23,435 nt of DNA from a virus. Shown one piece after another: positions 4,429 to 20,445 of the stretch. The notes under the pieces are model-generated. The model ran no database searches. It worked only from the letters and a program-made list of their open reading frames with translations, and was not told where the DNA came from. The stretch spans positions 1 through 23,435 of IMG/VR virus record IMGVR_UViG_3300025133_000607; one strand, written 5' to 3'. Position numbers and translations under genes: made by a program. Numbering within the stretch: position 1 is the stretch's first letter; every line of letters begins with the position of its first letter.

Positions 4429-5229
4429 ATGATCCCTCGACTCAAACGTCGGGCTGCTGCTATCTCAGCCTTCAAGAATCTCCAGTCACCGGAAGCCTCC
4501 AATCCTACGGATTTCACTTGCCGCGTAACGTCGCAGAGCGACGAAGAAATTGTCCTGGCTATCCGCGGCGACATCGGTGACGCATGGGAAGAGAACGACC
4601 ACGCTTCAGTGGTAGAGGCCCTGCAGAAATCGCCTCGGGCAAAAGTCAAGCTCTACATCAACTCCATGGGTGGGTCGGTCTTCGAAGGCTTTGGCATCGC
4701 CAATGCTCTTCTGGAGCACGAAGGTTTCGTGACGGCGATCATCGAAGGCGTCGCGTACAGTGCGGCCACCTTCCCACTGTTGGTCGCCGACAAAGTCATC
4801 GCACACAAAGCCTCCACAGTGGGGATTCACCGCTCCATGGTTTTGACCATGGGAAATCAGATCGAACACCTGGCTGCTGTCCAGCAGCTGGACGCGATTG
4901 ACGGCATCCTGATCGACTTGTACTCTGCCAAGACAGGGCTCAAGCGTGAAGCGATCATCCAGCTGTTGGACGCCACCATCGACGGAACAATGATGCCCTC
5001 GAAGCAGGCACTGTCACTCGGCTTCGTGGATGAACTCTTTAACTCTAGCCAAGATGAGGGAGGTGATCAATCTGATGACGACGATGACGAAGAAGAAGAA
5101 GAGGTCAAGGCCGAGTTAGCTACGAAGTGGCAGGCCCATAAAGCCAAGCGGAGGAAGCGAGAGGCTAACGCTGCTCGAGTTCGCCTTCGTGCCCTTGTGA
5201 CACGAGTATCAGGTAGGGCTTCTGACTAA
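4429..5229 (+). CDS. Prohead maturation protease, ClpP-like (S14)
   Basis: This 266-residue serine protease probably cleaves the capsid protein's scaffolding segment and other internal proteins during head maturation. The ClpP fold is clear: 'KLYINSMGGSVFEG' at 74-87 supplies the oxyanion loop, the nucleophile is Ser111 in 'GVAYSAATF', the histidine is His134 in 'GIHRSM', and Asp185 in 'TIDGTMMPSKQAL' is the best candidate for the third catalytic residue, ahead of 'GFVDEL' (199-203). A run of about ten acidic residues (216-225) is followed by a strongly basic tail (232-263), longer than a bare ClpP domain needs; it may bind other prohead parts. It starts two bases after the portal stop and its own stop overlaps the next start. 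Confidence 0.9.
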   Translation: MIPRLKRRAAAISAFKNLQSPEASNPTDFTCRVTSQSDEEIVLAIRGDIGDAWEENDHASVVEALQKSPRAKVKLYINSMGGSVFEGFGIANALLEHEGFVTAIIEGVAYSAATFPLLVADKVIAHKASTVGIHRSMVLTMGNQIEHLAAVQQLDAIDGILIDLYSAKTGLKREAIIQLLDATIDGTMMPSKQALSLGFVDELFNSSQDEGGDQSDDDDDEEEEEVKAELATKWQAHKAKRRKREANAARVRLRALVTRVSGRASD

Positions 5230-7950: not shown

Positions 7951-8871
7951 ATGACTCTTGTCCGTAAAACTCTCCCTCTCCTTCCTCTTGACGGACGCGA
8001 ACTCCTGTCTGCCGTCCGAGAAGACTCAGAGGACGAACTCGATCTGGCCGAAGGCTATCTGTATGCCGCTCAGGCGGCCCTGTACTCGCAGGTGCGGAGA
8101 GCCGCTCACAGGACTCAGTTTGAGCTGACGTTGCCTTGCTTCCCGTCCAACTACGATTCGTCAAACAACTTCGACGTCCCCTACACGAGGCACGAGTACG
8201 CCGCGGCGTACATCGAAGGGATCGAACTCCGGGTTCTGCCGTATGCGAAGGTGGACTCCATCCAGTACTACGATGCAGACAACGCACTGCAAACCTGGAC
8301 TGCCTCCAACTACACGATCATCGACGGCGGCGTTGACCGGCCAGCGACTATCTATCCCGCACCGGACGTCACATGGCCCGCTACGAAGGCTCGGCCAGAC
8401 GCAGTGGTAGTCACTTTCTGGGCCGGCGAAGTCACGCAGGCGACATACCTGGAAGTGGCACCCGACTTCGTGGGGACGGATGCTATCCAGACGGTCGACG
8501 GATACACGTTCGCTGTGGACGACATCATCACAGTCTCCCATTCAGCGAACAACAACGAAGTCCTCGGCCCTGTGGGGATAGGCTTCGGTACGACGGCTCG
8601 ACAGGACTACCACATCACCTACGTCTCTGGGGACACGTTTGAGATCGCGTTGACCAACGGCGGCACACCAATCGCATTGTCTACTCCTGTGGCCTCTACG
8701 GCGTTTGTGGGGACTCTCAGCCCACTTGTACGGAGAGTGCTCCTGTCCGTCGCCACAAACTGGTGGATGAATCGCTGTCCGCTCGAAGATTGCAGCTGCG
8801 AAACGAACGAAGCCGGTAAGATCGCGGGGCTCATGTCCCTGCTCCAATGGAATCACGGCCATGGAAATTAG
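7951..8871 (+). CDS. Head-tail adaptor (phiE125 gp8 / HK97 gp6-like) with inserted domain
   Basis: This 306-residue protein probably forms the adaptor ring under the portal. The family pattern is present: a helical start (25-50), an aromatic/strand segment (55-95), 'RVLPYAKVDSIQYYDADNA' (94-112), a Y-I-I strand near 121-124, 'WP' at 142-143 and 'AVVVTFWAGE' (151-160), then 'LSPLVRRVLLSVATNWWMNR' (256-275). Between the last two lies about 90 extra residues (163-256) rich in beta strands ('YTFAVDDIITVSHSANNNE', 'GDTFEIALTNGGTPI'), absent from usual family members of about 180-210 residues. The C-terminus has a CPLEDCSC cluster. The ATG lies just after a terminator, so its transcription must come by read-through or an unseen promoter. 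Confidence 0.8.
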   Translation: MTLVRKTLPLLPLDGRELLSAVREDSEDELDLAEGYLYAAQAALYSQVRRAAHRTQFELTLPCFPSNYDSSNNFDVPYTRHEYAAAYIEGIELRVLPYAKVDSIQYYDADNALQTWTASNYTIIDGGVDRPATIYPAPDVTWPATKARPDAVVVTFWAGEVTQATYLEVAPDFVGTDAIQTVDGYTFAVDDIITVSHSANNNEVLGPVGIGFGTTARQDYHITYVSGDTFEIALTNGGTPIALSTPVASTAFVGTLSPLVRRVLLSVATNWWMNRCPLEDCSCETNEAGKIAGLMSLLQWNHGHGN

Positions 8872-8874
8872 ACG

Positions 8875-9477
8875 ATGGACGCAGCTCTTGGTTGGTTTGG
8901 TGACGTTTTTCGCTTCTTGATGAAGCTGTGTCCTCATCTGGTTATCGTCAAGACAACCGACGAAGCCCTCAAGTGGGTCCGGGGATCGGAAGAGGTCCTC
9001 CTGACCAGCAGCAATGGCTGCCGCCGGTGCATCCCGCAGCTGCAGTCCACCTGGCCTTTCTTCCGTCGCCCGAGAACAGGGCTCCACTGGTATCTGCCCG
9101 TGGTCACGGAATTACTCGTGATCCCTGTCCGGCGGCAGACCCTCAATCTTGAGGACCAGTATCTCACCACGAAAGACTCTAAGTCTGTGGGGGTAGGAGG
9201 TATACTCGTGTGGGAGGTGAAGGACACTCGCGTTCTGCTCACCTCCTGTGAGGATTACGAAGACACCATGAAAGACATCAGTCTGGCAGTGGTCAAGCGG
9301 GTCATTACCACGAAAGACTTTCAGTGGTTCGTGGATAACCCGCACGACGCAGACAAGATGTTGACGCAGGCGATACGAAGAGAACTAAACCCGTTTGGCA
9401 TACGAACCAAGCGATGCACCCTAAGCGACTTCTGCCTCATCCGGCCTCTCGGCCTGTGGGGCAGTGGCTCTATGTGA
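8875..9477 (+). CDS. SPFH/band-7 domain protein inside the neck gene block
   Basis: The 200-residue product resembles the SPFH (stomatin/prohibitin/flotillin/HflK) domain, whose members form oligomers on membranes. Visible are a hydrophobic N-terminal helix (7-25), 'ALKWVRG' (31-37), 'GLHWYLPVVTELLVIPVR' (69-86, the 'G.h...P' signature), a Gln/Leu strand then 'LTTKDSKSVGVGGILVWEV' (97-115, the 'T.D...v.v...v.y.v' signature), and a C-terminal 'LTQAIRRELNPFGIRTKRC' (163-181, as in 'l...l..yGi.v'). It lies three bases after the adaptor gene and eight before the head-closure gene, so it is part of the same transcript. A role in the virion, at the host membrane during assembly, or in countering host defence are all possible; none is shown. 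Confidence 0.72.
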   Translation: MDAALGWFGDVFRFLMKLCPHLVIVKTTDEALKWVRGSEEVLLTSSNGCRRCIPQLQSTWPFFRRPRTGLHWYLPVVTELLVIPVRRQTLNLEDQYLTTKDSKSVGVGGILVWEVKDTRVLLTSCEDYEDTMKDISLAVVKRVITTKDFQWFVDNPHDADKMLTQAIRRELNPFGIRTKRCTLSDFCLIRPLGLWGSGSM

Positions 9478-9484
9478 GACAACC

Positions 9485-9850
9485 ATGCCCGTCCGAAAAC
9501 TACCCTGTACAACTGGTGGACTCGACAGCTATGACAAAGTGGCTGAGTACCAGCTGAAGCTGGAGGCACTGAATTCTTTCGGTGGGGTGTCCAACTCCAA
9601 TACGAATTGGACGAAGGTGTCTCGCGTCTATTGCAACCTGAAGACAGGCAACGGCACAGAAGTATATCGGGCGAAGCAGGTCGAATCTGATACTGATGCG
9701 GTAGTCACCATGGCGTGGAACTCGAAGACCGATGCGTTCGATGCCACTGGTAGGTTCGTGATCAAGGGGAAGACGTACAACATCCTGTTCGCCGTGAATG
9801 AGAACGACGACGACGCGAAGATGATATTCGGCTGCCGGAGAACGCACTGA
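9485..9850 (+). CDS. Head closure / head-tail joining protein
   Basis: The 121-residue product fits the head-closure (stopper) family of HK97-type necks: small, beta-rich, with 'WTKVSRVYCNLKTGNGTEVY' (a 'w..v..vya.i....g.E' pattern) followed by 'DAVVTMAWNSKTDAFDATGRF' and 'IKGKTYNILFAVNEN', the usual strand order. It would seal the portal-adaptor channel after packaging. I chose ATG 9485, seven bases after the upstream stop; a GTG at 9464 in the same frame would overlap the SPFH gene by 14 bp. Gene order (adaptor, closure, neck, completion) supports the call. Confidence 0.72.
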   Translation: MPVRKLPCTTGGLDSYDKVAEYQLKLEALNSFGGVSNSNTNWTKVSRVYCNLKTGNGTEVYRAKQVESDTDAVVTMAWNSKTDAFDATGRFVIKGKTYNILFAVNENDDDAKMIFGCRRTH

Positions 9851-9851
9851 C

Positions 9852-10478
9852 ATGAGAGTGTTCGTCAACAAGATTGACTCGCAGAACATCGCACTCTCAA
9901 TGGCTGCTATGCCAGACGCGATGTCCAACAAGATGATGAAGCCTGTCATGGACAGGCTGTCGTCCGTTGGTGCGAAGATGATGAAGAACAACCTGAAGAA
10001 GGTAGCTCGACGTCAACGGAAGGGAGACAGGTGGAAGAACACCGGTGCTCTGCTTGCTTCGATTGGCACGAAGAAGACGAAGCTGATGAAGAGCGGGGCT
10101 CTCTTCGGAGGGTTTGGTGTACGGCGGTCGCAGCACTTCGCCAAGAACAAACTGAAGACTGTCCGAGCACGAGTGGAGAAGATTACCACGTTCGGCTTCA
10201 AGAAAGTAAAACGTGGATCGATCCGTCTCGCTACGGCGAAGTCGAAAGTTGGTCCTCGCGGAGCGAATGAGATTCGCCCGAGTAACTACGCTCACCTGGT
10301 GGAACGCGGCCACGGCGGCCCCATCGTCGCGAAGGCTTACCCCTTTGCAGGCCCAACGGCCATCGAGATGGAAGGCTACTTTCGCGGGCATGCACCTAAG
10401 CTGCTGAAGGAACGCTGGGAGCCCCTCCTCAACCAGATGTCCGCCAGATTCAACAAGACAATAGCCCGAGGAAGATAA
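9852..10478 (+). CDS. HK97 gp10-like neck protein
   Basis: This strongly basic 208-residue protein matches the HK97 gp10/minor-tail neck family. Residues 64-72 (TGALLASIG) match the 'G.l..si' phrase, and 'NYAHLVERGHGG' (145-156) followed by 'AYPFAGPTA' (162-170) matches 'YA..vE.G...  ..PFl.PA'. The family joins the neck to the tail tube. The stretch from 80 to 140 is unusually long and Lys/Arg-rich, so it may touch DNA. ATG 9852 begins one base after the upstream stop. A GTG-started gene follows after two bases, so the set is translationally coupled. Confidence 0.82.
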   Translation: MRVFVNKIDSQNIALSMAAMPDAMSNKMMKPVMDRLSSVGAKMMKNNLKKVARRQRKGDRWKNTGALLASIGTKKTKLMKSGALFGGFGVRRSQHFAKNKLKTVRARVEKITTFGFKKVKRGSIRLATAKSKVGPRGANEIRPSNYAHLVERGHGGPIVAKAYPFAGPTAIEMEGYFRGHAPKLLKERWEPLLNQMSARFNKTIARGR

Positions 10479-10480
10479 CC

Positions 10481-10927
10481 GTGGCATACATAACAGATGA
10501 CCTTCTCGCGTACCTCGGGGCTCACGCCAGCATCACTCCGCTGATCACTACAGACCCTCTGCATATCTTCGCGGAGGCTGTCCCCGATCAGGTACGCAAT
10601 GCGTCCGGCAAACTGGTGAACATCGGGGACACGTACATCATCCTGGAGGAGGACGGTGGAACCAAGGACCGAGACATGGGAGGGTTCAGTGGGACGCGAG
10701 AGCCCAGTTTCACCATCACGGTGACTGCCCCCGGCAAACTGGCTGTCCGGCAGCTTTTCCTGGCTTTGGACGTCGCCCTGGAGATCAATCACTACCAGAT
10801 GAATGACTTCTGGATCGAGCATTCCTTCCTCGATGAGCCGCGGGACGTCAGCACTACGCCGCAGGACGGCACTGATGTCAATATCTACAAGATGGAGTCT
10901 ACACTGGATTTGATGGGTAGTCTGTAG
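10481..10927 (+). CDS. Tail completion / tail terminator protein (HK97 gp11-like)
   Basis: The 148-residue product resembles the DUF3168-type tail completion family, which caps the tail tube and joins it to the neck. It begins with a helix (DDLLAYLGAHASITPLITTD), followed by 'IFAEAVPDQ', a Gly/Asp loop, and strand-helix-strand sections ('SFTITVTAPGKLAVRQLFLALDVA'). It starts at GTG 10481 with GAGGAAG a few bases upstream, the best ribosome site in this block. The identity rests on position and secondary-structure pattern; no single motif is decisive. Confidence 0.7.
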   Translation: MAYITDDLLAYLGAHASITPLITTDPLHIFAEAVPDQVRNASGKLVNIGDTYIILEEDGGTKDRDMGGFSGTREPSFTITVTAPGKLAVRQLFLALDVALEINHYQMNDFWIEHSFLDEPRDVSTTPQDGTDVNIYKMESTLDLMGSL

Positions 10928-11253: not shown

Positions 11254-11697
11254 ATGTCAAGCACAGAAGTACGCAGTGGTATAGGCACAACGATTGCCTT
11301 CGCCACGTCCTCATTCACGGCTCGCGTCAAAGGCTACACGGACCTGAGTGTCGAGCGTGAAACGCTTGATGGCACTCACATGGGTACGGCAGCTTCGACC
11401 ACTTCACCATTCACCGGTCTGCATTTCAAGGAAATGTGTCCCGGCGATTTGGCGACAGTCGGTGACCTGCAGCTGGACATCGTATTTGATCCGGATGCGA
11501 ACGACCTGCCGGTCGCTGCAGCCGAAGAAGTCATCACCCTCCAGTTCACCACTGTTGGTGCTCAATCAACTGGGGCCAGTTGGGTCTTCACCGGTTTCAT
11601 CAGTAAGTTCGACGCAGCAGTTCCGCATGACGGAATGATCACTGGGTCGATCACACTCGTAGTCAACGGCGAACCAACCTGGACCGCAGGTTCGTAA
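11254..11697 (+). CDS. Major tail tube protein, copy 1
   Basis: The 147-residue product is probably a tail tube subunit, stacked in rings around the tape measure. The pattern is typical: 'GIGTTIAFATSSFTARV' at the start, 'RETLDGTHMGT' (35-45) and a middle 'CPGDLATVGDLQLDIVFDP', with a C-terminal 'GSITLVVNGEPTW'. AGGAA lies about ten bases upstream of ATG 11254. It is roughly 84% identical to the product of 11815-12264. Its place between tail completion and chaperone genes supports the tail tube call. Confidence 0.78.
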   Translation: MSSTEVRSGIGTTIAFATSSFTARVKGYTDLSVERETLDGTHMGTAASTTSPFTGLHFKEMCPGDLATVGDLQLDIVFDPDANDLPVAAAEEVITLQFTTVGAQSTGASWVFTGFISKFDAAVPHDGMITGSITLVVNGEPTWTAGS

Positions 11698-11814: not shown

Positions 11815-12264
11815 ATGTCCGTCGCAGAAGTAAGAAGTGGTATCGGAACCACGATCACCTTTGGCACCAGCGGGTTCACCGCTCGCGTCAAGGGTTATAC
11901 CGATTTGAGTGTCGAGCGTGAAACGCTTGACGGCACTCACATGGGTACGTCCGCCTCCGTTACCGCACCTTTCACCGGTCTGCATTTCAAGGAAATGTGT
12001 CCCGGCGATCTAGCCACAGTTGGCGACTTGCAACTCGATATCGTATTCGATCCGGATGCGAACGACCTGCCCATCGCTGCTGCCGAAGAAACCATCACGC
12101 TCCAGTTTGCTCAGTTGTCGACTCAGTCGGCCGGAGCCACCTGGGTCTTCACGGGTTTCGCAAGTAAGTTTGATGCAGCCATCCCGCACGACGGGTTGAT
12201 AACTGGATCTGTCACTCTCATCGTCAACGGCGAACCTACGTGGACCGCCGGCGTCGACATCTAA
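11815..12264 (+). CDS. Major tail tube protein, copy 2
   Basis: This 149-residue protein is a close paralogue of the previous gene, with about 84% identical residues and the same length plus two C-terminal residues. AAGGA lies eight bases before ATG 11815, a good ribosome site. Differences cluster in three places: the first 20 residues, 46-51, and 87-120, with scattered conservative changes later. Blocks such as the 38 bp from TTCACCGG to CGGCGAT (11972-12009) are identical in both genes, pointing to recent duplication or gene conversion. The two subunits could mix in one tube or be used at different places. Confidence 0.78.
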   Translation: MSVAEVRSGIGTTITFGTSGFTARVKGYTDLSVERETLDGTHMGTSASVTAPFTGLHFKEMCPGDLATVGDLQLDIVFDPDANDLPIAAAEETITLQFAQLSTQSAGATWVFTGFASKFDAAIPHDGLITGSVTLIVNGEPTWTAGVDI

Positions 12265-17642: not shown

Positions 17643-18215
17643 ATGCTATTAGGACGATGCGATTGCCACTGTGCGGAGCCTCCGAGTGAGAGCAGTCCGC
17701 CGAGTGAAAGCAGCCCTCCAAGCGAGAGTGTCTCCGCTTCGGCTTCAGTGTCCAGCAGCAGCGAGTATTCACAGTTCATCGGTTGCACCGCTTGTCAGGA
17801 TTCTGTCGCGGCTGTCGCATATGACGTGACCATTGAGAGCTCTACCTACTGCACCTCTGCCTACACGGGGACTTTCAGGTGTAGGAGATATGAGACAGGA
17901 GACCCATGGTACATATTACCTGGCACCAGTATCGCTGCTTGCCGGTGGATCACCGACGAGTTCAAGTGCTCCCGTCCTGGGTGTGTGAGTACTGGAAGTT
18001 ACGCCCGTATTCAGTTGTGTGCTTACCCTGTACCCACAGACAAGACACGGCTGCAGTGTTCCATCATATGGGATCCGGACGAGCTCTTCAATAGCGTGGA
18101 GGACCAGACACTCTCTGTTGACGTGGATCAGCCTTACAACTGCCTGCAGGATTGGGGTATATCAGGAGGGCTGGACGACGGGCTGTCTATCGTCTCAGTA
18201 GTGCCTGCGGTATGA
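17643..18215 (+). CDS. Cys-rich tail protein with Pro-Ser-Glu repeat
   Basis: The 190-residue product opens with CDCHC (6-10), then a low-complexity linker of three PPSESS-type units and a Ser/Ala stretch (13-40), and then a domain with ten more cysteines (13 in all: 6, 8, 10, 48, 51, 70, 80, 100, 109, 114, 126, 139, 167). Cys-X2-Cys at 48-51 and the CDCHC start suggest metal binding or disulfides. There is no signal peptide. Its last bases overlap the glycosyltransferase start (ATGA), so the two are coupled. I do not recognise the family; a tip or surface role fits the context. Confidence 0.6.
   Translation: MLLGRCDCHCAEPPSESSPPSESSPPSESVSASASVSSSSEYSQFIGCTACQDSVAAVAYDVTIESSTYCTSAYTGTFRCRRYETGDPWYILPGTSIAACRWITDEFKCSRPGCVSTGSYARIQLCAYPVPTDKTRLQCSIIWDPDELFNSVEDQTLSVDVDQPYNCLQDWGISGGLDDGLSIVSVVPAV
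17679..17732 (+). repeat. Tandem 18-bp repeat, 3 units
   Basis: Three in-frame 18-bp units (17679-17696, 17697-17714, 17715-17732) encode PPSESS, PPSESS and PPSESV. The units differ mainly at third bases. Being a multiple of three, changes in unit number would lengthen or shorten the linker without breaking the gene. Confidence 0.85.
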
Positions 18216-19933
18216 AACCCTGTGCTCACAGAATAAACGTGGAAGAGGAGCACTGCGGGTGCCTGTCTCCTAAGCTGATAGTTCCCGAACGCATCCCCCT
18301 TTCTGTCTGTGACAGGTGCCCTTACACAGAAGCCCCCGGACTCAAGGGTCTCGGCGATCTCGTCGAACGCGGCCTGAATACCGTCGGCATTACGCAGGAA
18401 CGAGTAGAGAAAGTTGTAGGTCACGACTGCGGTTGCACTGAACGAAAATCCTTCCTCAACAAACTCGTCCCGTTCGGCGTCCCCGACGAACCCACCGAGA
18501 TCTGCACTCCCGACGAGCTACAGTTCATCTGGGTCTACTGGGATGGAGGTGCAGCCTTAGACGAACTGCGATACTCGATGCGGTCCATCGAGAAGAACTA
18601 CCAGGGCAAAGCTAAGCTGACGATCATCGGTGACAGGCCCCGCTGGTTCAAGGGTCACGTCATCCACCAGAGAAGAGTAAACGCCGGGGACAGAGGATTC
18701 CAGAGGGGATTGCGTGACGTCCTCGCTAAGATGCACACCCTCAGTCGTCATCCAGATGTGCAGGACGAATTCGTGTGGATGATGGACGACGTCTTCATGG
18801 TCAAGCCATGCACGTACACCGATATGGTTACGCCGCGGGCAGCCCCAGCCATCAAGCGGTCAAAGGGTAACCGGTGGCAATCCATCAAGACCAACACGGC
18901 TGCTCGTCTCGAACGCAACGGCCACACAACGTACGACTACGGAACTCATCTTCCGCATCACGTGGAGAAGGCGAAACTCGCTGGGATGTTCAAGGTGTGG
19001 AAACCACTCGAGCACCTCTTCCTATGGGAGGTCGTCTACGGCAATCTGTACCGAGGCAAGCCCCAGTCGCACGTACCCTTTCTCCGTCGTACGAAGGACA
19101 AGGTGGAGGACGCAACCTATACTCGATGGGCCAAGCGGAACTCGTTCTTCAACCTGGCCAAAGACGGATGGGGTCACCCGATACGCAACTGGTTGATTGA
19201 CAGGTTTCCCGAGCGTGCCGCCGGCGAGGAAGGAGCCCTGCCCGTACACATGAGTTCGCAGGTTCGCAACGAGCCAATCGACGAACACATCATCCTGATT
19301 CAGTCTGCGTACAACGACGCAGAGCTCAGTCGCAGTCGACTTGCTCTGTCTCGTAAGACGGTCTACCCAGCGTTGCTGCAGCAGACCGTTGATGTCCGAC
19401 TGCAGGTCTCTGTGTGCGAAGACGACCCTCTGCTCGCTGACAGGAAGCGGATGTTCGAGTCCATGAGGCACCCCGTGGAATTCGTGTTCAACGAGCCTAC
19501 CGTGGAGGGTGATCTCTACTCGCACAAATGGGACCTGCCCGTCGGCCCACGGAATCTCGTTGGTCGCGTTGACGACGACGATATCCTGCCTGTCGATTTC
19601 TGCCGTATCAGCCAGGAGAAAGCGGCCTACTGTGACGAAGACGGGGTGCTGATCTGGCCGAACGGATACGTCTTCTATGAGGGCGAGTTCTACCGAATGG
19701 CTCATCCCGGCAATCAGTTCTGTGCCTTGGTTTCTCGTCGTGGAGTGGGTCCTCACGAGTTTGACCACCACACGTACGAGAAAGCCTGGCCAGTGTTATA
19801 CGCCGAGCACAGCCGAGGCTGGGTCTGGGTCAGGCATGACGGAGCCATCACCAACACTAAGCCTCGATACTTACACGCCAAAGGCACCCGATTAAACACT
19901 CGCCGCTTCCCTTATGATTTCAGTCAGCTGTAG
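18212..19933 (+). CDS. Two-domain glycosyltransferase with Cys-rich N-terminus
   Basis: This 573-residue protein looks like a fusion of two sugar-transfer domains. Residues 1-90 hold Cys/His clusters (C4, H6, C15, C17, C33, C36, C73, C75) including 'HDCGCTERKSFLNKL' (71-85). Residues 103-350 resemble the Stealth/capsule phosphotransferase type: 'LDELRYSMRSIEKN' (116-129), 'FVWMMDDVFMVKP' (187-199). Residues 358-565 resemble a GT-A rhamnosyltransferase type: a 'SRSRLALSRKTVYPALLQQT' phrase and the metal-binding 'GRVDDDDILP' (451-460). The frame is open from 18152, but ATG 18212 overlaps the upstream stop and starts the Cys-rich part. Likely targets are tail proteins or a surface glycan. Substrate and linkage cannot be read. 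Confidence 0.7.
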   Translation: MKPCAHRINVEEEHCGCLSPKLIVPERIPLSVCDRCPYTEAPGLKGLGDLVERGLNTVGITQERVEKVVGHDCGCTERKSFLNKLVPFGVPDEPTEICTPDELQFIWVYWDGGAALDELRYSMRSIEKNYQGKAKLTIIGDRPRWFKGHVIHQRRVNAGDRGFQRGLRDVLAKMHTLSRHPDVQDEFVWMMDDVFMVKPCTYTDMVTPRAAPAIKRSKGNRWQSIKTNTAARLERNGHTTYDYGTHLPHHVEKAKLAGMFKVWKPLEHLFLWEVVYGNLYRGKPQSHVPFLRRTKDKVEDATYTRWAKRNSFFNLAKDGWGHPIRNWLIDRFPERAAGEEGALPVHMSSQVRNEPIDEHIILIQSAYNDAELSRSRLALSRKTVYPALLQQTVDVRLQVSVCEDDPLLADRKRMFESMRHPVEFVFNEPTVEGDLYSHKWDLPVGPRNLVGRVDDDDILPVDFCRISQEKAAYCDEDGVLIWPNGYVFYEGEFYRMAHPGNQFCALVSRRGVGPHEFDHHTYEKAWPVLYAEHSRGWVWVRHDGAITNTKPRYLHAKGTRLNTRRFPYDFSQL

Positions 19934-19935
19934 CC

Positions 19936-20445
19936 ATGCACCATTCCTCAATGAAGAAAATGAGCGAGTTCGCTCGGGTCATGCTCCGTGGCAAGGACCC
20001 GAGCAAGACCTCCGTCCTTGACGTCGGATCCCTCAACGTCAATGGTACGTATCGTTCGCTGTTCAAGGGCTGTGATTATGTCGGCTTGGACATAGTGGAA
20101 GGAGATGGCGTTGACATCACTGTGGTCGACCCGTGGAGCTGGAAGGAGCTAGATGGACGCAAGTTCGACCTGATCATCTCAGGTCAGTGTCTGGAGCACG
20201 TGGAGTACCCGTGGAGGACCGCAAAGCTAATGCTTGACCATTGTGTCGCAGACGGCTTCCTGGCCGTTACAGCCCCTGCCAGACAGGTCAGGCACAACTA
20301 CCCGAGCGATTACTTCCGGTACTTCGAGCAGGGATTGATTGCTCTGTTCGAGGGCGAGATAGATGTGGTGACTGCCGGCTGGACGGAGGGGAAAAAGGTT
20401 GACGATGCCTGGCTTCTGGCTCGACCGAAGTGGAGATCGACCTAG
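19936..20445 (+). CDS. SAM-dependent methyltransferase (class I)
   Basis: The 169-residue product has the class I methyltransferase landmarks: motif I 'VLDVGSLNVNG' (27-37), 'YVGLDI' (48-53) with an acidic end for the ribose, and 'FDLIISGQCLEHVEYPW' (77-93). Downstream 'HNYPSDYFRYFEQGL' (120-134) is typical of small Methyltransf_11-type enzymes that often act on sugars. It starts two bases after the glycosyltransferase stop, so the pair probably acts in one pathway, perhaps capping a glycan. The acceptor is unknown. No DNA-methylase motif (such as NPPY) is visible. Confidence 0.82.
   Translation: MHHSSMKKMSEFARVMLRGKDPSKTSVLDVGSLNVNGTYRSLFKGCDYVGLDIVEGDGVDITVVDPWSWKELDGRKFDLIISGQCLEHVEYPWRTAKLMLDHCVADGFLAVTAPARQVRHNYPSDYFRYFEQGLIALFEGEIDVVTAGWTEGKKVDDAWLLARPKWRST

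What the first reader, a model, noticed from the sequence alone, without database searches (positions are those of the whole stretch)
8875..9477. An SPFH/band-7 protein encoded inside the phage neck gene block
SPFH proteins are membrane-scaffold proteins of cells, not known parts of an HK97-type neck. Here one sits three bases after the adaptor gene and eight before the head-closure gene, in the same tight transcript. It shows a hydrophobic N-terminal helix, the GLHWYLP and LTTKDSKSV...VWEV signatures and a C-terminal FGIRTKRC section. Either it is a new neck or assembly component (ring-forming like adaptors), or a membrane-acting accessory protein expressed with late genes.
Basis: partly seen in the sequence, partly recalled or inferred. 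Interest (0 to 1): 0.78.

Follow-up and report, generated by a model that had tools for sequence, protein, structure and literature searches.

The report
Phage mini-SPFH membrane protein in neck operon
A small stomatin-like membrane protein really is encoded between two neck genes of this uncultured phage, but about 80 other phages carry relatives of it in quite different places, so it is most likely an accessory protein acting at the host membrane and not a part of the phage neck.

Summary
Window 8875-9477 encodes a 200-aa SPFH/Band_7 protein (Pfam E 1.4e-14). It lies 3 bp after the adaptor gene and 7 bp before the head-closure gene (PF05521). Related contigs (L012, and the near-identical L015/L016) keep it in the same slot under purifying selection, so it is neither an artefact nor a recent stray insertion. 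AlphaFold2 with 57 relatives gives a confident SPFH fold (pLDDT 90; stomatin Z 16-18).

The reading as a neck component is not supported. The protein belongs to a large, apparently undescribed family of 170-208-aa "mini-SPFH" proteins in 80 or more uncultured viral contigs: an amphipathic N-terminal helix plus SPFH1-SPFH2, with no coiled coil. About 57% sit just after a large tail-type gene; others lie beside an endolysin, a terminase or replication genes. None of 50 such phages has a convincing PF05521 neck gene. In the tree the neck-slot proteins form one clade nested among proteins in non-neck positions.

Best explanation: an accessory protein bound to the inner membrane surface that acts on host membrane organisation or membrane proteolysis. 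The target is unknown. A virion role is unlikely but not excluded. SPFH genes in phages were known; the minimal, coiled-coil-less family is the new part.

The parts
8875..9477 (+). mini-SPFH (Band_7) gene, 200 aa
   Evidence: PF01145 E 1.4e-14; AlphaFold2 pLDDT 90.4, stomatin Foldseek E 2.5e-13; VIA Z 18.2 to 8gn9, 16.2 to 9zd2
8878..8925 (+). codons 2-17: predicted amphipathic N-terminal helix (presumed membrane-surface anchor)
   Evidence: helix 2-17 in the model; residues 2-19 family mean hydrophobic moment 0.48 against 0.20 for shuffled
9007..9075 (+). codons 45-67: insertion before the GLHWYLP motif, of low model confidence; present in only about 11 of 57 family members (the clade of P0001)
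   Evidence: alignment columns; pLDDT 57-72
9124..9441 (+). codons 84-189: SPFH2 core; the protein ends 11 residues later, with no coiled coil
   Evidence: VIA alignment of model 85-189 to 8gn9
7951..8871 (+). head-tail adaptor-like protein, 306 aa, with an extra segment of about 90-100 residues that distant adaptors lack
   Evidence: alignment A4; distant adaptors 178-235 aa
9485..9850 (+). head closure protein (Phage_HCP)
   Evidence: PF05521 E 3.7e-9; phrog_25 Hc1 E 2.4e-5
9852..10478 (+). HK97 gp10-like / Neck1-like protein (weak match)
   Evidence: PF04883 E 0.27, phrog_5 E 0.11; by position
10481..10927 (+). probable tail completion protein (by position only)
   Evidence: no family match

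Best explanation
The gene encodes a minimal SPFH protein: an amphipathic N-terminal helix followed by SPFH1-SPFH2, with no coiled coil. It belongs to a widespread family of accessory genes of uncultured tailed phages. In one phage lineage it moved into the adaptor/head-closure interval and is now presumably co-transcribed with the neck genes. The protein most likely lies on the inner face of the host membrane, self-associates through its SPFH domains as stomatins do, and alters host membrane organisation or FtsH/NfeD-type membrane protein quality control late in infection. SHOWN: SPFH homology, predicted fold, fixed short length, gene position, purifying selection, mobility between contexts. 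INFERRED: late expression, membrane binding, self-association, action on host membrane proteins.
For: Band_7 in all window-lineage copies, E about 1e-14 to 1e-15, and E about 1e-17 in a per-record search. AlphaFold2 pLDDT 90.4 with 57 relatives; nearest folds stomatin, prohibitin, HflK/C, QmcA. 83 stretches encode relatives in IMG/VR, 80 loci kept; complete members 170-208 aa. N-terminal helix amphipathic in family average. 42 of 74 loci lie within about 1.7 kb after a large tail-type protein (weak tail match); L141 starts an endolysin immediately after the SPFH stop codon; L136 and MW202733.1 near TerL. PF05521 over the cut-off in 0 of 50 carriers. Neck clade (100/100) nested in an 11-row clade (100/95) of otherwise non-neck genes.
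Against: No experiment and no direct evidence of membrane binding or of a target. Oligomerisation in known SPFH cages relies largely on the coiled-coil helices that this family lacks, so rings may not form. The closest relatives sit in replication or nucleotide-metabolism neighbourhoods in at least some phages (L061, L074, L079), which argues against strictly late expression. One phage lineage kept the gene in the neck slot, which a structural role would also explain.
Confidence: 0.6

Rival explanations
1. It is a new structural or assembly component of the HK97-type neck, forming a ring between adaptor and head closure.
For: Position between adaptor and head closure in window, L012, L015, L016; conservation similar to the neck genes; SPFH proteins form rings; the adaptor of the same lineage carries an extra segment.
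Against: Relatives occur in phages without a detectable PF05521 gene and in non-neck positions. Distant phages with related adaptors have no SPFH ORF at this place. The neck-slot copies are one nested clade.
Confidence: 0.1
2. It is a poison or cap of host SPFH assemblies: with SPFH domains but no coiled coil it inserts into HflK/C, stomatin/NfeD or flotillin cages and blocks them, releasing or redirecting FtsH-type proteolysis.
For: Retains SPFH1-SPFH2, lacks the part that makes the cage wall (architecture of SPFH cages in PMC12624060). Fixed short length across the whole family. HflKC modulates FtsH and the lambda CII decision (stated in PMC4936722).
Against: No sign of which host SPFH it would match; closest by fold is stomatin rather than HflK/C. 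The family is widespread over divergent phages, so a single host partner would have to be very conserved.
Confidence: 0.15
3. It is part of the lysis or superinfection-exclusion equipment at the membrane (lysis timing, holin partner, blocking of further DNA entry).
For: Often near the end of the tail module; directly upstream of an endolysin in L141; holin-like and lipoprotein-like ORFs follow it in L065 (by eye); a Vi01-like phage SPFH gene lies beside a superinfection-exclusion gene (PMC3220722).
Against: Endolysin family phrog_7 found in only 1 of 50 carrier records, though that family does not cover all endolysins. Members also sit beside DNA polymerase or helicase genes.
Confidence: 0.15

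Closest known systems
Stomatin / slipin family (human stomatin; Pyrococcus PH1511; bacterial slipins)
   Same: SPFH domain by sequence (E 9.8e-12 with profile A8) and fold (Z 16-18); membrane-proximal N-terminal segment
   Different: No C-terminal coiled coil, no detectable hydrophobic hairpin, 170-208 aa in all; encoded by phages
HflK/HflC (FtsH modulators)
   Same: Shares the SPFH domain; weak TIGR01933/TIGR01932 matches
   Different: Scores far below the NCBIfam cut-offs (26 against 159 bits); no transmembrane helix, no coiled coil
PHROG 200 (SPFH 'lipoprotein' of larger phages) and Pfam-noted SPFH ORFs of T4-like phages 44RR, Aeh1, RB43 (PMC1524935)
   Same: Phage-encoded SPFH; 50 of 57 mini-SPFH members hit phrog_200
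   Different: phrog_200 is 379 positions long and matches P0001 only over residues 68-129 at E 0.004; sampled cultured-phage SPFH genes lie outside the neck block
UniProt A0A6J7WFI0 'HflK' of an uncultured Caudovirales phage
   Same: 173 aa, best viral structural match (TM 0.70/0.81): probably a member of the same family
   Different: 16% identity; genome context not examined
Prohibitin-like gene of podovirus MW202733.1
   Same: Stand-alone 187-aa SPFH protein (Band_7 E 2e-11), gene next to the terminase large subunit
   Different: 19% identity; not in the neck

Membership tests
SPFH / Band 7 superfamily | PF01145 match above gathering score | tested here: met
   55 bits against a cut-off of 23.6; all four window-lineage records over the cut-off
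SPFH / Band 7 superfamily | SPFH1-SPFH2 fold | tested here: met
   AF2 pLDDT 90.4; Foldseek E 2.5e-13 stomatin; VIA Z 16-18
SPFH / Band 7 superfamily | N-terminal membrane anchor (transmembrane helix or hydrophobic hairpin) | tested here: inconclusive
   Amphipathic helix, moment 0.51; no window over the usual transmembrane threshold; binding untested
Cage-forming SPFH proteins (stomatin, prohibitin, HflK/C, erlin) | C-terminal CC1/CC2 coiled coil that builds the cage wall | tested here: not met
   Chain ends about 11 residues after the SPFH2 strand; all complete family members 170-208 aa
Cage-forming SPFH proteins (stomatin, prohibitin, HflK/C, erlin) | Ring or cage oligomer on a membrane | not testable with these tools
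   No multimer prediction or experiment available
HflK or HflC (equivalog) | NCBIfam TIGR01933 / TIGR01932 above curated cut-off | tested here: not met
   26.3 and 19.1 bits against 159.4 and 134.4
Known neck families (adaptor, head closure, Neck1, tail completion) | Match of P0001 to a connector family | tested here: not met
   No connector PHROG or Pfam match for P0001
Phage 'mini-SPFH' family (defined here) | Full-length alignment, 170-208 aa, N-terminal helix then conserved Pro and a K-[WF] motif, SPFH, no coiled coil | tested here: met
   A9 alignment of 57; P20, G69, P75, T78, G175 invariant

The most novel reading that the evidence does not exclude
In this lineage the mini-SPFH protein has been recruited into the virion as a ring at or near the neck that touches the host membrane during DNA entry or assembly, together with the extra segment of the adaptor: the first SPFH protein in a phage particle.
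Probability: 0.08. Interest if true: 0.85.

Novelty: new variant of a known kind. Interest (0 to 1): 0.5.

Why it matters
SPFH proteins are found in all domains of life, yet what many bacterial ones do is unclear. A large family of minimal, coiled-coil-less SPFH proteins that diverse phages keep at near-constant length suggests a useful activity residing in the SPFH domains alone. It would give small proteins for testing what SPFH domains do at bacterial membranes and whether phages target membrane microdomains or FtsH-type proteolysis.

Tried and rejected
AlphaFold2 with only three sequences failed (pLDDT 30); 57 sequences solved it. tblastn of five family members against 50,697 phage records gave nothing: the family has no cultured-phage member detectable at that sensitivity. 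Two genome-contig scans found no cellular relative, so no host could be named. A match to known defence families was looked for and not found for P0001 (PADLOC). Recent acquisition was rejected: GC and GC3 of the gene (0.56, 0.70) equal those of its neighbours. A frameshift or assembly artefact was rejected by the independent related contigs. Lysis as the sole explanation is not favoured: phrog_7 in 1 of 50 records. Paper searches found no description of this family, in an open-access library only. In the VIA list, vault, FliL and ribosomal rows below the SPFH rows were taken as shared sub-folds, not relatives.

Full report
OBSERVATION. The ORF at 8875-9477 (200 aa, P0001) is present and intact. 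It lies 3 bp after the adaptor-like ORF (7951-8871) and 7 bp before the head-closure ORF (9485-9850; PF05521 E 3.7e-9; phrog_25 Hc1). P0001 matches PF01145 Band_7 at E 1.4e-14 and stomatin sequences in the PDB at 5.3e-5 alone, 9.8e-12 with an 8-member profile. The window is a 23,435-base IMG/VR virus record.

REALITY OF THE SLOT. Contig L003 is 100% identical over its 12,023 bp and adds no independent evolution. L012 (SPFH 68% identical) and L015/L016 (77%; these two contigs are near-identical to each other) have the same order adaptor-SPFH-HCP-gp10-like-tail completion. Differences between window and L012 or L015 are concentrated in third codon positions (53/33/116 and 38/21/120). dN values are of the same order as those of neighbouring genes; dS is saturated, so exact ratios should not be used. 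GC3 matches the neighbours. The gene is old in this lineage and under purifying selection.

IS THE SLOT A NECK POSITION ELSEWHERE? A scan with the adaptor alignment brought 28 loci. In the 23 distant ones examined, the ORF after the adaptor is in most cases a head-closure-sized ORF of about 100-120 aa that overlaps or follows closely; some contigs end too early, L027 and L029 have other ORFs there, and none shows an SPFH ORF (by reading ORF lists; head-closure identity was not checked by profile for each). So SPFH is an insertion into the neck operon of one lineage.

THE FAMILY. Iterating alignments (A1, A7, A8) through viral contigs gave first 4, then 12, then 83 stretches that encode relatives (80 loci kept). 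Apart from one apparently interrupted ORF (L142), members are 170-208 aa long. They share an N-terminal helix, an invariant proline at position 20, a K-[WF] motif near position 33, and SPFH1-SPFH2; none has a coiled-coil extension. The clade of P0001 carries an insertion of variable length before the GLHWYLP motif. 50 of 57 members hit phrog_200, P0001 itself only over residues 68-129 at E 0.004. No close match was found in INPHARED phages. The best viral structural match is a 173-aa protein annotated 'HflK' from an uncultured Caudovirales phage. A further stand-alone SPFH protein sits after TerL in podovirus MW202733.1, and a 218-aa relative (31% identity, E 7e-12) sits between integron-like repeats on a Vibrio campbellii replicon.

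STRUCTURE. With 57 sequences AlphaFold2 gives pLDDT 90.4, pTM 0.79: helix 2-17, SPFH1, SPFH2 ending at 188. Foldseek ranks stomatin, prohibitin and HflK/C first, with QmcA also among the top matches (best E 2.5e-13). VIA-align gives Z 18.2 over 105 residues at 1.2 A (8gn9) and Z 16.2 over 159 residues at 3.8 A (9zd2). The N-terminal helix is amphipathic (family mean moment 0.48, shuffled 0.20 +/- 0.10) and is not hydrophobic enough for a transmembrane helix in 52 of 57. Known SPFH complexes such as erlin and prohibitin run transmembrane helix - SPFH1 - SPFH2 - CC1 - CC2 - C-terminal region, and the CC1 helices form the cage wall (PMC12624060); these proteins keep only the SPFH part.

CONTEXTS. 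In 43 of 74 loci a large (about 860-1050 aa) tail-type protein lies within five genes; in 42 its end is 0 to about 1.7 kb upstream of the SPFH gene, in the one exception the gene call looks wrong. Its tail identity rests on weak phrog_2048 matches (E 6e-5 and 1.2e-3). L141: an endolysin starts immediately after the SPFH stop codon (phrog_7 E 8e-16). L136: T7-type TerL upstream. L110: major head protein downstream. L079: DNA polymerase A. L074: helicase. L061: thymidylate synthase. PF05521 reaches the cut-off in 0 of 50 carrier records (one sub-threshold hit, E 0.0043, about 19 kb away); many are fragments, so absence in any one is weak, but the sum is telling. In the tree, the three neck-slot proteins are one clade (100/100) inside an 11-row clade (100/95) whose other members lie elsewhere. 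The shared property of the family is the protein, not the neck.

HOW IT MOST LIKELY WORKS. Shown: SPFH homology and predicted fold, near-fixed minimal architecture, mobility between contexts, purifying selection in the window lineage. Inferred: association with the inner membrane surface through the amphipathic helix, self-association by SPFH domains, and action on host membrane organisation or on FtsH/NfeD-type proteolysis, in the window lineage together with late genes. I put about 0.8-0.85 on 'accessory protein, not a neck part' and 0.35-0.4 on the membrane/protease step; 0.6 for the statement as a whole. Rivals: poison of host SPFH cages (0.15; overlaps with the best explanation), lysis or exclusion (0.15), neck component (0.1).

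KNOWN AND NEW. SPFH genes in phages are known: T4-like phages (PMC1524935), Vi01-like (PMC3220722), prophage AH14b (PMC4936722), haloviruses (PMC7230728), Brevundimonas and Xanthomonas large phages. I found no description of the minimal, coiled-coil-less family, but the paper library is partial. Filed as a new variant of a known kind.

LIMITS. All close relatives are metagenomic contigs, many incomplete; hosts are unknown; neighbouring genes were called by a simple longest-ORF rule; expression timing is inferred from gene order only.

Noticed in passing
window 8425-8730 (within the adaptor gene 7951-8871): The adaptor of this lineage carries an extra segment of about 90-100 residues (306 aa against 178-235 in distant relatives), without a clear database match. 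It occurs in the same phages as the neck-slot SPFH gene; whether the two are linked is unknown.
   Followed up: partly
window 11254-11697 and 11815-12264: Two tandem tail-tube-like genes, about 80% identical in DNA; the duplication is also present in L012, L015 and L016.
   Followed up: no
window 18152-19933 and 19936-20445: A Stealth CR2 / glycosyltransferase-like gene and a methyltransferase gene within the tail region: possible glycan modification genes.
   Followed up: no
window 4429-5229: The ClpP-like prohead protease also weakly matches NfeD1b_N (E 0.002), the protease type that partners stomatins in cells; probably just the shared ClpP fold.
   Followed up: no
L051:1276-1932 (Vibrio campbellii NZ_CP050465.1): A cellular mini-SPFH gene lies between 133-nt direct repeats of integron attC type: it seems to be an integron cassette, so this minimal SPFH also travels outside phages.
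   Followed up: partly
L061:5626-6276 and L062:5602-6276: In the closest sister phages the mini-SPFH gene is followed by conserved genes of unknown function (216-224 aa and 269-270 aa).
   Followed up: no
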